This document shows, piece after piece, positions 368-47,387 of a DNA stretch of 64,000 nucleotides. Source of the DNA: an uncultured Methylococcaceae bacterium (lineage in GTDB: Bacteria > Pseudomonadota > Gammaproteobacteria > Methylococcales > Methylomonadaceae); NCBI GenBank assembly GCA_903839855.1, contig CAIMEB010000057.1, positions 1-64,000 of the forward strand, written 5' to 3'. The notes under the pieces are model-generated. The model had not been told where the DNA came from. It made no database searches and worked only from the letters and a program-made list of their open reading frames with translations. The translations under genes and the position numbers were made by a program. Numbering within the stretch: the first letter of the stretch is position 1; each line of letters starts with the position of its first letter.

Positions 368-429
368 ATTACCCATGATAGGGTATAAATTACCTAATAA
401 TAGGTAATTTATACCCTATCATGGGTAAT
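368..429. repeat. Perfect 29-bp inverted repeat with 4-nt loop
   Basis: attacccatgatagggtataaattaccta - ataa - taggtaatttataccctatcatgggtaat; arms fully complementary by inspection; no flanking T-tract. Confidence 0.95.
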
Positions 430-583
430 TCACATGCTTACTTGTAACTTGGCCTTAATTATTTGATGCGTTGATCGGGTAACATTACACCCAAGAGGCA
501 TTACCGAAAGCTTCCACAAAATGACTAATTGCCCGAGTTATTTGATTTTCATTCCTAAGCGGGTAGCCGTTTTTTGTGAAGAC

Positions 584-820
584 TTAATAACTGCCATATT
601 CGGGGGGAGAGAGACCGTACTTTATTAAAGCCTCAAAGTCTTCCAGTACCAGCGGCCTGCTAAACAAATACCCCTGGTAATTTACACAGCCATGATCCAA
701 TAAAAACCGCCGTTGTTCTTCTGTTTCTACCCCTTCCGCGATGACGTTTAGATGCAGATTGTCTGCCATAGCAATAATGGTACGAAATCGGCGTGCCTTT
801 CTTCCTTGGCACTCCAGAAA
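584..820 (-). pseudogene. C-terminal remnant of an EAL-domain (c-di-GMP phosphodiesterase) protein
   Basis: ...TIIAMADNLHLNVIAEGVETEEQRRFLLDHGCVNYQGYLFSRPLVLEDFEALI is the canonical EAL C-terminus; upstream homology is lost within ~15 codons and an in-frame stop lies at ~824-826. Confidence 0.85.
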
Positions 821-827
821 GTCTTAC

Positions 828-1205
828 TGGACCTCAAGTGCGAAATGAAAAGTCATTTTAGTATTCACTTGCAAGGAAAGACTTTCAGAGTAAACAGAAC
901 CCTTCTTAGAGTAAAAGAATACTTGTTTGTAGCAAACAAGATCATGTTTTTTCTAAACAAGGTCATGTTTACTCTAAACAGGCTTTCTTTTGTCGCAAAC
1001 AGAACCTAGAATGCTCATTTCTTGACCTACTGAACGATTCACCACTCATCATTGACTCTGAATAGAGGTCTTTTTAGAGCATTTAAGGTCTTGTTTACTC
1101 TAAAAGAGATTAAGAATGTGACAAACAAGGTCATGTTTAGCGTAAACATGACCTTGTTTGCTATAAAAGAGTCTCTTTTCATTGCAGACACGGATACGAT
1201 AACTG
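828..1205. repeat. Degenerate tandem array, 21-bp period, dyad-containing units (copy A)
   Basis: Units begin at 870, 891, 912, 933, 954, 975, 996 and, in the same phase, at 1080, 1101, 1122, 1143, 1164; e.g. caaacaagatcatgttttttc, taaacaaggtcatgtttactc, taaacatgaccttgtttgcta. Confidence 0.9.
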
Positions 1206-1272
1206 TAGAGTGATTATTGATTGCGGCACTCTTGTTAACCTTTGGTCACCTTAAATGAAATTTCTTGATATA

Positions 1273-40698: not shown

Positions 40699-40933
40699 AA
40701 TTCCTCGCAAAGGTTTTAAAATTTGAAACGATTTGTTGATAAAGAATTAACTGTATCGAATAGATTTAACGCTAGTTAGTCTACTTACAGTCCATTTCTT
40801 CAGTGACATCGTTATTGCTGAAGCGATTTTAACATTATTCTTTAAAGCAAAAACTGGCTTATCATTGAATCAATCAATTTAATTAAAGCCTGATGTTGCT
40901 GGTTACAGCCTTTGAATCGATTAAAATATCACC

Positions 40934-41437
40934 CTATCCATCTTTAAGAGAACGACGCAAATCCTTAATAAGACGATAAAGGTGTAACGGGTCTGTCGGT
41001 GAGGCAATAAAACCAAACCGTTCATAGAACTGTTTAGCTTGTCTGTCTTTGGCATGAACGGCAAAAGCACGAATACCGCCAATATCGGCAGCTTGCAAGG
41101 TGCGTTTCATTGCGTCCTTCAGTAAACCAGAACCAATACGGCGACCTTGCCAAGCTTTGCTAACAGCAAGCCGCGCTAACAACATAATGGGAACAGGGTG
41201 ATGAGCCAAGCCTTTGGTTAAACGTTCGGGCGCATCACAAAAAGCAATTTCACCCACAACGAGACTGTAAAAACCAATCACCTCTGCATCATGTAGACCA
41301 ATATAGGTTTGTGAGGCGTTGGCTTGCTGATTTCCAAGAGCGTAACGAATCAAAAAACGGTCAAGCTCCTCGCTACCTGAGCTAAAGTTATCGATAGGAT
41401 GGTCACGACGTAGCTTTTCAATACGAAATCCGGTCAT
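40934..41437 (-). CDS. GNAT acetyltransferase, TacT-type toxin
   Basis: LARLAVSKAWQGRRIGSGLLKDAMKR, AVHAKDRQAKQFYERFGF; overlaps DUF1778 gene by 4 nt. Confidence 0.92.
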   Translation of the reverse strand: MTGFRIEKLRRDHPIDNFSSGSEELDRFLIRYALGNQQANASQTYIGLHDAEVIGFYSLVVGEIAFCDAPERLTKGLAHHPVPIMLLARLAVSKAWQGRRIGSGLLKDAMKRTLQAADIGGIRAFAVHAKDRQAKQFYERFGFIASPTDPLHLYRLIKDLRRSLKDG

Positions 41438-41721
41438 TCGACCTTCGTCTCAAATGGGCTTGACTCACGAAATAACTGTTGCAGTTGAGGCACTATTTGA
41501 GGAGGTGCATCGAGTACTGCCATAAATTTTTCCCATTGCTCAGCATCAAGTTCAAAGCGTCGCCGTTCGGTTAGTGTTTCAGTCGCACGTTGCAAAGCAC
41601 TTGCTAAGACAAACTGGCTGACAGAGCAATGAGCGGCTTTAGCAGCGGCGCTTAAAGTCTGTTTTGCTTCCTGTGATAAACGTAAATCGAGTTTTGTGGT
41701 GCGCGTTGATTGAGCCATCAT
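41434..41721 (-). CDS. DUF1778 (TacA-like) antitoxin
   Basis: TTKLDLRLSQEAKQTLSAAAKAAHCSVSQFVLASALQRATETL...; RHH-type DUF1778. Confidence 0.93.
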   Translation of the reverse strand: MMAQSTRTTKLDLRLSQEAKQTLSAAAKAAHCSVSQFVLASALQRATETLTERRRFELDAEQWEKFMAVLDAPPQIVPQLQQLFRESSPFETKVE

Positions 41722-41763
41722 AGTTCCTCCGGTATTGAAGGGAAAGTATCATAGATGACAGAC

Positions 41764-41777
41764 ATTGTCATGACAAT
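41764..41777. promoter_or_regulatory. Palindromic operator candidate upstream of TacAT-type module
   Basis: attgtcatgacaat perfect 14-bp palindrome, with flanking TGACA/TGTCA half-sites. Confidence 0.5.
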
Positions 41778-41813
41778 AATTGACAACCATGACAGACGAA
41801 GATCAGCTTGCTC

Positions 41814-42150
41814 TTAACAAGACCCAGAATGCTCTAAAAGGAAAGACTTTCAGAGTAAACAGAACCACTTTTAGAGCAAAAGGATACTTGTTTGTTACAA
41901 ACAAGATCATGTTTACTCTAAACAGACTTCCTTTTGTCGCAAACAGAACCTAGAATGCTCAAAAGGAAAGACTTTTAGAGTAAACAGAACCATTCTTAGA
42001 GCAAAAGAATACTTGTTTGTTGCAAACAAGATCATGTTTACTCTAAAAGAGATTAAGAATGTAACAAACAAGGTTCTGTTTATCGTAAACATGACTTTGT
42101 TTGCTATAAAAGAGTCTCTTTTTATTGCAGACACGGATACGAAAACTGTA
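41814..42150. repeat. Degenerate tandem array, 21-bp period, dyad-containing units (copy B)
   Basis: Units at 41835, 41856, 41877, 41898, 41919, 41940, (20-nt unit) 41961, 41981, 42002, 42023, 42044, 42065, 42086, 42107; ends in gcagacacggatacga as copy A does. Confidence 0.92.
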
Positions 42151-42300
42151 GAGCTGTCATTGTATACGGCGTTCTTGTACTTGTTTATGGTAGTTTAATT
42201 TTTAAAGCGGTTAAATATTAAACAATCCCTAGTGATTTTTCAGACATAATACCTCTTATTACAATGTAATCCCCCCAATATAAATTTTCAGAGTTTATTT

Positions 42301-42579
42301 ATGCCAACCATCAGTATGTTTTACGGGATCATTATCTCAATGTTCTTTGAGATCCAAGAAAAACATCATTTACCACATATTCACGTTCGCTATCAAGGCT
42401 ATAAGGCCTCGATTGCTATTGAAGATACTAGACTATTAGCGGATGAGTTACCACCGCGACAGTTGCGTATGGTGCAGGTATGGATTGATTTACATCAGGA
42501 AGAATTGTTGGCCGATTAGGAACTTGCCACGGAAGGTGTCGAACCCTTTAGAATTGACCCACTCAAATAAACGAGGCTG
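42301..42579 (+). pseudogene. DUF4160 protein with in-frame TAG at 42517-42519
   Basis: MPTISMFYGIIISMFFEIQEKHHLPHIHVRYQGYKASIAIEDTRLLADELPPRQLRMVQVWIDLHQEELLAD*ELATEGVEPFRIDPLK*; the stop occupies the usual Trp of the ELLANWELA-type motif. Confidence 0.75.
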
Positions 42580-42582
42580 ACA

Positions 42583-42825
42583 ATGTTACTTGATATAATC
42601 AATGTAACCGTTCAATCCGATTTCATTCTGCTTCTTGAGTTTGAAAATGGGGAGAGACGTGTATTTAATATGATGGCTTATTTAAAACAAAAACCTTGGT
42701 CTCGGCTCAAGTCAGGGAATGTGTTTCAAAGTGCTTTTATAGAAAATGGTACTGTGGCATGGCCGGGTAATATAGATATCGATCCAGAAACACTTTACGA
42801 ACTATCTGTATTGGTTGATAAATGA
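42583..42825 (+). CDS. DUF2442 domain protein
   Basis: LLLEFENGERRVFNMMAYLKQKPWSRLKSGNVFQSAFIENGTVAWPGNIDIDPETLYE; pairs with DUF4160. Confidence 0.9.
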   Translation: MLLDIINVTVQSDFILLLEFENGERRVFNMMAYLKQKPWSRLKSGNVFQSAFIENGTVAWPGNIDIDPETLYELSVLVDK

Positions 42826-46321: not shown

Positions 46322-46675
46322 ATGAAAGAACGTATTTTATCGTGTATCGTAGTCGTTTATTTACTGGGTTTTGTTATTTTCGGACTGTCTGGTTGTTCGG
46401 TTCTTAGCAAAAAACCGGATACTGAAGTCGCAGCAAACACAGCTTATTATGTCTGTTCAGGCTGTCATGGTTTAGAAAATGTTCGGGTCAACTTTATGAC
46501 GCCCAATATCATGGGTCAAAAGAAAGGCTATTTAGTGGCAACATTACGTGATTATCGTGACCATAAACGGATTGAACCCTTAATGAATGGAGCAGTTGCA
46601 AACTTAAGTGATCAAGAGATTGAAAATCTTGCCGCCTATTACGCTAAGGCGCAAGGAATGAGAGATGAGAGATGA
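46322..46675 (+). CDS. Monoheme c-type cytochrome lipoprotein
   Basis: Lipobox LSGC; YYVCSGCHGLENV; LAAYYAKAQG. Confidence 0.85.
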   Translation: MKERILSCIVVVYLLGFVIFGLSGCSVLSKKPDTEVAANTAYYVCSGCHGLENVRVNFMTPNIMGQKKGYLVATLRDYRDHKRIEPLMNGAVANLSDQEIENLAAYYAKAQGMRDER

Positions 46676-46784
46676 GAGATGAGGTGAAGGCAAAATAATT
46701 TTGATGATGAGTTGGGATAAGGTATACACTGTGGTACCTTTGCAAGAAACTATTTATTGAACATTTAGCTTTTGAGGTATTAGT

Positions 46785-47387
46785 ATGAAAAAAATCAGCT
46801 TGTTAGTTATTTTATGGTTAACTTTGATTGTACCATTTGCTGCAAACGCGGATACAAAATCGTCCGATAATCAATCGTCCGATAATCAAATTAGTCAGAA
46901 TAACGATCATGAAAATGAAGGCGGCACCAGCTTTAAGGGGTTGTCTGAAAGAGATCCTTATGTAATGACAAAAGAAGGCAGTGATTCTTTCACTTATAGA
47001 AATCTTACTGAATCAGGAAAAACCGATAGTTTTTTCTCGATAACAGAAGGAGACACACATGTTTTTTCGGCGTCTGTGAGTTCAGACGACTCTTCAACCA
47101 GAATGACACCAACTCTTATCGACGTAAGCACAGGTAAAACCGTTGCACTTAACCATGAAGGCAATTATTATACTTATAGTGGATTAGTATCTGGTCACGA
47201 ATACGACTTTGAGGTCAATTACACGGTATCTCCACATTCTAGCGCTACGGTTTATACAACGGTGGCTGTTGCTGCTGTACCGGAGCCTAAACAATGGGGC
47301 ATGATGGTAACTGGTTTATTATTGATTGCAACGAAGGTAAAGAAGGCTAAAAAGTCGGCGAACACACAACGCTCGGTTTATGCTTAA
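46785..47387 (+). CDS. PEP-CTERM domain exported protein
   Basis: Signal peptide; C-terminal AVPEPKQWGMMVTGLLLIATKVKKAKKSAN (PEP motif, TM, basic tail). Confidence 0.88.
   Translation: MKKISLLVILWLTLIVPFAANADTKSSDNQSSDNQISQNNDHENEGGTSFKGLSERDPYVMTKEGSDSFTYRNLTESGKTDSFFSITEGDTHVFSASVSSDDSSTRMTPTLIDVSTGKTVALNHEGNYYTYSGLVSGHEYDFEVNYTVSPHSSATVYTTVAVAAVPEPKQWGMMVTGLLLIATKVKKAKKSANTQRSVYA

What the first reader, a model, noticed from the sequence alone, without database searches (positions are those of the whole stretch)
41814..42150. Second copy of the 21-bp array 41 kb away, differing by whole units and with higher-order structure
Copy B shares ordered units with A: ggaaagactttcagag / taaacagaacc..tt.ttagag / .aaaagaatacttgtttgt.. 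/ caaacaagatcatgttt..tc / caaacagaacctagaatgctc. Both end in tctctttt.attgcagacacggatacga.aactgtagag. Within B the block ggaaagactttyagag-taaacagaacc... recurs at about 41840 and 41965, giving a ~125-bp higher-order repeat. A has an extra unit (954-974) where B has none, so arrays seem to change by unit gain or loss. A 20-nt unit at 41961-41980 would break any reading frame, which supports a DNA-level rather than protein-level role.
Basis: seen in the sequence. Interest (0 to 1): 0.72.

Follow-up and report, generated by a model that had tools for sequence, protein, structure and literature searches.

The report
Phased 21-bp repeat arrays in methanotrophs
The repeat is real: it is one of at least seven non-coding arrays scattered between genes in this methane-eating bacterium, all built on the same rule (a short two-sided site every 21 bases, two turns of the DNA helix), and a third of the related arrays sit just upstream of one family of uncharacterised genes; what the arrays do is unknown.

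Summary
Copy B (41814-42155) and copy A (873-1210) are homologous, and are two of at least seven dispersed intergenic arrays in a Methylobacter-like Methylococcaceae MAG. Species orthologs differ by whole 21/42-bp units: the B locus has +42 bp in one of four species, and 13 full-length copies differ internally only by 21 or 42 bp. The 125-bp higher-order repeat is real; its 20-nt unit is a recent 1-nt deletion. "gcagacacggatacga" is not a conserved boundary. Stops in every frame, no codon periodicity and no RNA covariation make it DNA-level. Beyond the finding: (1) arrays with unrelated inner sequence, one in another Methylococcales family, share one grammar, TTTRNNNYAAA every 21 bp (38 hits here, control 0); none in 365 Gammaproteobacteria outside the order. 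(2) AA/TT steps are helix-phased. (3) About 12 of ~32 array loci carry a ~210-aa Fn3-type gene or its remnant, always with the array on the gene's 5' side; none of the gene in ~0.57 Mb of other DNA. Best reading: same-face sites for an unidentified DNA-binding or architectural protein, originally upstream of the Fn3 genes, spread and reshuffled by recombination. Function unproven; a neutral MIRU-like satellite is the main rival.

The parts
41814..42155 (+). Array B: about 16 units of 21 bp (one of 20 nt), solo array without the Fn3-type gene
41822..42070 (+). 125-bp higher-order repeat (two copies of six units, one nucleotide short of 126)
   Evidence: the G019 ortholog lacks the 1-nt deletion
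41955..41965 (+). Site of the 1-nt deletion that makes the 20-nt unit (TGCTC-AAAAGG against TGCTCTAAAAGG)
41870..41943 (+). Four consecutive perfect TTTRNNNYAAA boxes at exact 21-bp spacing (41870, 41891, 41912, 41933)
   Evidence: zero mismatches
873..1210 (+). Array A, homologous to B, with one extra 21-bp unit (954-974) and a central non-array segment (about 1017-1085)
40852..41785 (-). Strain-variable insert abutting array B: TacT-like GNAT (40934-41437) and TacA-like antitoxin (41434-41721); absent at this site in orthologs G007 and G019, present in G017
42301..42825 (+). Downstream genes in this species: DUF4160 (42301-42519) and DUF2442 (42583-42825); a different gene follows array B in other species (RelA/SpoT-like in G019)

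Best explanation
Array B is a stand-alone member of a family of non-coding, dispersed DNA elements of Methylococcales. Each element is a run of about 8-26 units of 21 bp. The constant part of the unit is an 11-bp dyad, TTTR-NNN-YAAA (centre often CTC/GAG); the other 10 bp are particular to the array. SHOWN: the elements are intergenic, multi-copy, change by whole units, keep the 21-bp register and the dyad bases better than other positions, are not coding, show no base-pair covariation, and about a third of the loci lie 5' of a ~210-aa Fn3-type gene or its remnant. INFERRED mechanism: the dyads are sites for a dimeric DNA-binding or nucleoid-type protein which, at two helical turns' spacing, loads side by side on one face of the DNA and makes a phased or curved nucleoprotein array upstream of the Fn3 gene's own promoter; solo arrays such as B are copies whose gene has been lost or replaced. 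Unequal and non-allelic recombination between arrays changes unit number, converts copies, and puts arrays at the edges of strain-variable DNA.
For: Family and orthology. Whole-unit indels: among 13 full-length copies the internal indels are 21 or 42 bp; small indels per substitution 0.020 in elements against 0.070 in neighbouring intergenic DNA. Outer dyad columns change least: at the true phase 0.62 changes per column against 0.85 overall, lowest of 21 phases; p 0.013 with like-for-like conditioning. Grammar: three boxes at 21-bp spacing with <=2 mismatches, 38 hits in G000, 40 in G007, 25 in G017, 26 in G019, control 0 in each; a 26-unit array with unrelated inner sequence in another family of the order (G284:C79); 0 of 365 genomes of the class outside the order (<=1 mismatch). 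Dyads are consensus half-sites, not base-pair coupled, as expected for protein sites. AA/TT helical phasing 0.97-1.24 against 0.40 +/- 0.11 background in the main family, above >=99% of column-permuted periodic controls. Array 5' of the Fn3-type gene; conserved promoter/leader between array and gene. Recombination junctions.
Against: No binding protein was identified. Dyad conservation is moderate, and the two small B-type tests taken alone were not significant (p 0.38, 0.08). Curvature depends on the model: strong with Bolshoy-type wedges and AA/TT phasing, absent with De Santis-type rolls (parameters from memory). Two thirds of the array loci have no Fn3-type gene, and flanking-gene orientation at solo loci is not consistent. 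Concerted evolution inside arrays could mimic part of the constraint.
Confidence: 0.45

Rival explanations
1. Neutral dispersed minisatellite (MIRU/VNTR-like): arrays arise by slippage and unequal crossing-over from a palindromic 21-bp seed, spread by recombination, and have no sequence-specific role.
For: Unit number varies by recombination; paralog conversion; several arrays highly degenerate; patchy distribution; no consistent neighbour orientation at solo loci.
Against: Same TTTRNNNYAAA/21-bp grammar in arrays with otherwise unrelated units and in two families of the order; depletion of small indels; slowest change at the dyad phase; non-random position 5' of one gene family.
Confidence: 0.3
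2. The array is one module of a small mobile unit (array + Fn3-type gene) that moves or duplicates as a cassette; solo arrays are its relics.
For: 8 intact array+gene loci and 4 with gene remnants, array always 5'; gene remnant beside arrays in G007:C11, G284:C227 and G286:C169; arrays at junctions where flanks change between species.
Against: No transposase, terminal inverted repeat or target-site duplication seen; no clean empty site found; loci are mostly vertically inherited among four species; no relatives in phage, plasmid or viral collections.
Confidence: 0.15
3. REPIN/attC-like element that acts as a hairpin in ssDNA or as a structured RNA.
For: Strong predicted folding (z -8.3 and -7.8).
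Against: Folding follows from palindromic units; covariation term -0.95 kcal/mol, 3 of 103 pairs with double changes; tolerated changes equal to column-shuffled control (0.65 against 0.61); no unit-level arm compensation; no Rfam match near a gathering score.
Confidence: 0.07
4. Decayed or living gene for a heptapeptide-repeat protein (21 bp = 7 codons).
For: Some arrays have open frames of 67-141 codons with seven-residue patterns; indels keep multiples of 21.
Against: Stops at the same place in every paralog and all frames interrupted in most copies; substitutions by codon position 107/133/129; 1-nt deletion tolerated in B; no credible Pfam family for the consensus peptides.
Confidence: 0.05

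Closest known systems
MIRU / VNTR minisatellites of mycobacteria (e.g. PMC3635867)
   Same: Dispersed, mostly intergenic tandem repeats whose loci are vertically inherited and differ by whole units
   Different: Strict 21-bp register with an 11-bp dyad conserved between arrays of otherwise unrelated sequence; preferred position 5' of one gene family
TRIP1 repeats of E. coli (PMC10888264)
   Same: A few copies per genome, 146-273 bp, each at a fixed locus, cause chromosomal rearrangement
   Different: TRIP1 is GC-rich and is not described as a 21-bp phased array
REP/BIME/REPIN elements (PMC3116915, PMC2817692)
   Same: Extragenic palindromic repeats, sometimes in ordered clusters, dispersed in one lineage
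   Different: No hairpin-specific conservation, no RAYT transposase noticed nearby, unit period 21 bp
Helically phased A-tracts / intrinsically curved DNA (PMC3940949)
   Same: AA/TT steps phased with the helix, proposed to work with nucleoid-associated proteins
   Different: Here discrete arrays built from a conserved dyad box, tied to particular loci; A-tracts only three bases long
Iterons / operator arrays of plasmid and phage replicons (from general knowledge)
   Same: Direct repeats of about two helical turns, same-face protein sites
   Different: Chromosomal, multi-locus, no rep gene noticed beside them, no plasmid or phage relative found

Membership tests
MIRU/VNTR-type dispersed minisatellite | Tandem units at several fixed intergenic loci, with unit number varying between related genomes | tested here: met
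MIRU/VNTR-type dispersed minisatellite | Unit-number variation between strains of one species | not testable with these tools
   Only one genome per species held; variation shown between species only
REPIN/BIME | REP hairpins with a RAYT transposase in the genome | tested here: inconclusive
   No REP-like hairpin conservation; no transposase of this kind was noticed among the neighbouring ORFs, but these were not annotated systematically and RAYT was not searched genome-wide
MITE or other transposable element | Terminal inverted repeats and target-site duplication, with empty sites | tested here: not met
   No shared termini or duplications on inspection of the 23-copy alignment; no clean empty site at three loci
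CRISPR array | Identical repeats separated by unique spacers, with cas genes | tested here: not met
   Units degenerate with no unique spacers; CRISPR-accessory-type genes beside one locus only
Structured RNA family | Covariation supporting a conserved fold | tested here: not met
Protein-coding heptapeptide repeat | Open frame and codon-position bias | tested here: not met
   open in a few copies only
Array of same-face protein-binding sites (iteron-like) | A protein that binds the repeated site | not testable with these tools
   Sequence features fit; binding not testable

The most novel reading that the evidence does not exclude
Methylococcales carry a previously undescribed class of chromosomal element: long arrays of an 11-bp dyad (TTTRNNNYAAA) set exactly two helical turns apart, whose intervening 10 bp are free to diverge between arrays, bound along one face by a dedicated architectural protein and functionally coupled to a family of Fn3-type genes of unknown function lying directly downstream.
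Probability: 0.25. Interest if true: 0.72.

Novelty: new variant of a known kind. Interest (0 to 1): 0.55.

Why it matters
Bacterial tandem repeats are usually read as neutral markers. Here arrays with unrelated sequence keep the same spacing rule and the same dyad and sit preferentially in front of one gene family, so sequence-specific, helix-phased DNA can be tested as a function. The arrays also sit where gene order changes between species (toxin-antitoxin insertion, replaced neighbours), which bears on how methanotroph genomes rearrange.

Tried and rejected
Coding heptapeptide (translations, codon-position test, Pfam): rejected. RNA structure (fold z; 45, 46, 48 covariation): rejected at this depth. 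Unit-level hairpin or cruciform by arm compensation: no excess within units (p 0.93), marginal across spacers (p 0.04). Phage or plasmid origin: no relatives. Clean empty sites with target duplication: none found. Intrinsic curvature: supported in two of three models only, so not claimed. Fn3-type protein structure (pLDDT 56, no match with E <= 0.001): uninformative. Literature for this repeat: none found in the held library.

Full report
SETTING. The window is part of contig C57 of a 3.4-Mb MAG (G000); its AtpD is 94-98% identical to Methylococcaceae such as Methylobacter and Methylovulum. Copy B lies between a TacT/TacA-type toxin-antitoxin pair (40934-41721) and DUF4160/DUF2442 genes (42301-42825).

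OBSERVATION. B and A align at 77% over 342 bp (E 4e-74). B's identity to itself at lag 21 is 0.48 against 0.28 +/- 0.025 in shuffles. The 125-bp higher-order repeat and the extra unit in A are real. The genome holds further copies on C123, C181, C152 and C247, and an array of a different unit on C146. In full-length copies (C181, C123, C247) the whole ~430 bp is in 21-bp register.

ORTHOLOGS AND PARALOGS. Within the genus, strong matches occur in four species and weaker ones in three more (7 of 35 genomes). With a 411-bp full-length copy as query, 8 of 237 family genomes match, one only marginally. The B locus next to purC is shared by G000, G007, G017 and G019. At this locus G017 has 42 bp more; elsewhere G007:C92 has 21 bp more, G000:C152 21 bp less and G007:C41 42 bp less than other copies. 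Among 13 full-length copies (4,938 pairwise substitutions) internal indels are 21 or 42 bp, apart from alignment offsets at the truncated edge of C152 and in the C152/C41 pair. B's 20-nt unit is a 1-nt deletion shared by G000 and G007 and absent from G017/G019. At one locus the flanks are nearly identical between species while the right end of the element differs, which indicates conversion between copies. At several loci one flank is conserved and the other changes at the edge of the array. The TA module beside B is absent at the same site in G007 and G019.

NOT CODING, NOT RNA. Stops interrupt all frames of most copies, some at the same place in every paralog. Substitutions fall 107/133/129 on the three codon positions. 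Small indels per substitution are 0.020 in elements, 0.070 in intergenic DNA and 0.010 in genes (pairwise counts, not independent). The RNA fold is strong (z about -8), but covariation is negligible and equal to column-shuffled controls. Arms are no more complementary within a unit than between units of the same array. So the dyad is a consensus property, as expected for protein half-sites and not for base pairing.

CONSTRAINT. Over 10 full-length copies the columns at the outer dyad (AAAC/GTTT) have 0.62 changes per column against 0.85 overall, the lowest of 21 possible phases. Comparing only consensus-matching columns, outer positions change less than inner plus spacer positions (p 0.013). 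B-type copies trend the same way but are too few to be significant.

GRAMMAR. A sequence-only model and a translated search found more divergent arrays in the genus. Their inner sequences differ, but TTTRNNNYAAA recurs every 21 bp. A three-box pattern (<=2 mismatches) gives 38, 40, 25 and 26 hits in the four main genomes with zero control hits, and hits in several others. G284, of another family of the order, carries a 26-unit array with unrelated inner sequence, although its control count is also raised (10 against 21). At <=1 mismatch none of 365 Gammaproteobacteria outside the order matched. The cross-array consensus was phased with the pattern itself, so it illustrates and does not test.

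DNA SHAPE. AA/TT dinucleotides are phased with the helix: main-family arrays 0.97-1.24 against 0.40 +/- 0.11 in the window, above about 99.7% or more of column-permuted periodic controls. The 400-bp segment starting near 41700 is the extreme of the window (2.1-63.5 kb) in two of three models. A De Santis-type model shows no excess. Parameters were recalled from memory, so curvature is a lead only.

GENE ASSOCIATION. The arrays were found by DNA similarity, a sequence model, a repeat peptide or the grammar, none of which uses the gene. Yet a ~210-aa gene family with a C-terminal Fn3 match (weak in most members) lies downstream of arrays at: locus 4 (G000:C247 and orthologs), G007:C26/G019:C123, G028:C183/G034:C187, G034:C121, G009:C76, G008:C127, G026:C47 and G284:C79. 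Remnants lie beside arrays in G007:C11, G284:C227, G286:C169 and, weakly, G017:C106. The array is on the gene's 5' side every time. By my hand count this is about 12 of 32 distinct loci. No family member was found in about 0.57 Mb of DNA not chosen for arrays; two hits listed there (L223, L227) are array loci that entered through an array-containing query. Several of these genes share a promoter/leader between array and start codon. The protein's function is unknown; the model is poor (pLDDT 56) and without a significant structural match.

INTERPRETATION. Shown: a dispersed non-coding array family with whole-unit turnover, a grammar conserved beyond sequence similarity, and non-random placement 5' of one gene family. 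Inferred: the boxes are same-face sites for a dimeric or architectural protein, and the array is an upstream element of the Fn3-type genes; B is a stand-alone copy. A neutral MIRU-like satellite remains possible (0.3).

LIMITS. MAG contigs, one genome per species, no expression or binding data; locus counts were made by hand; whole-genome searches were exhausted before a census of the Fn3-type gene could be made.

Noticed in passing
window 368-429: 62-bp near-perfect inverted repeat (TTACCCATGATAGGGTATAAATTACC... / reverse), also found in G007:C63 and G017:C156.
   Followed up: no
window 40852-41785: TacT/TacA-type toxin-antitoxin insert next to array B, present in G000 and G017 and absent at the same site in G007 and G019.
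   Followed up: partly
window 42301-42570: DUF4160 gene ends at a stop (42517-42519) after which the frame continues with plausible sequence; possibly a nonsense mutation.
   Followed up: no
window 46658-46683: Heptanucleotide repeat ATGAGAG x3.7 just upstream of an ORF (46785-47387).
   Followed up: no
L144 1664-4620 (G000:C247): Cas_NE0113 protein, a weak Csx1-CARF match and an STIV_B116-like (PF08960) protein next to an array and Fn3-type gene, which looks like a type III CRISPR signalling neighbourhood.
   Followed up: no
L142 1109-6631 (G000:C181): 5.5-kb accessory stretch holding an array, between two genes that are adjacent in G027/G028.
   Followed up: no
L143 5974-8709 (G000:C152): 911-aa ORF with repetitive Gly/Ser/Asn-rich sequence (autotransporter-like by eye) next to an array.
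   Followed up: no
window 574-784: Remnant that reads like the end of an EAL-domain gene upstream of array A (by eye).
   Followed up: no
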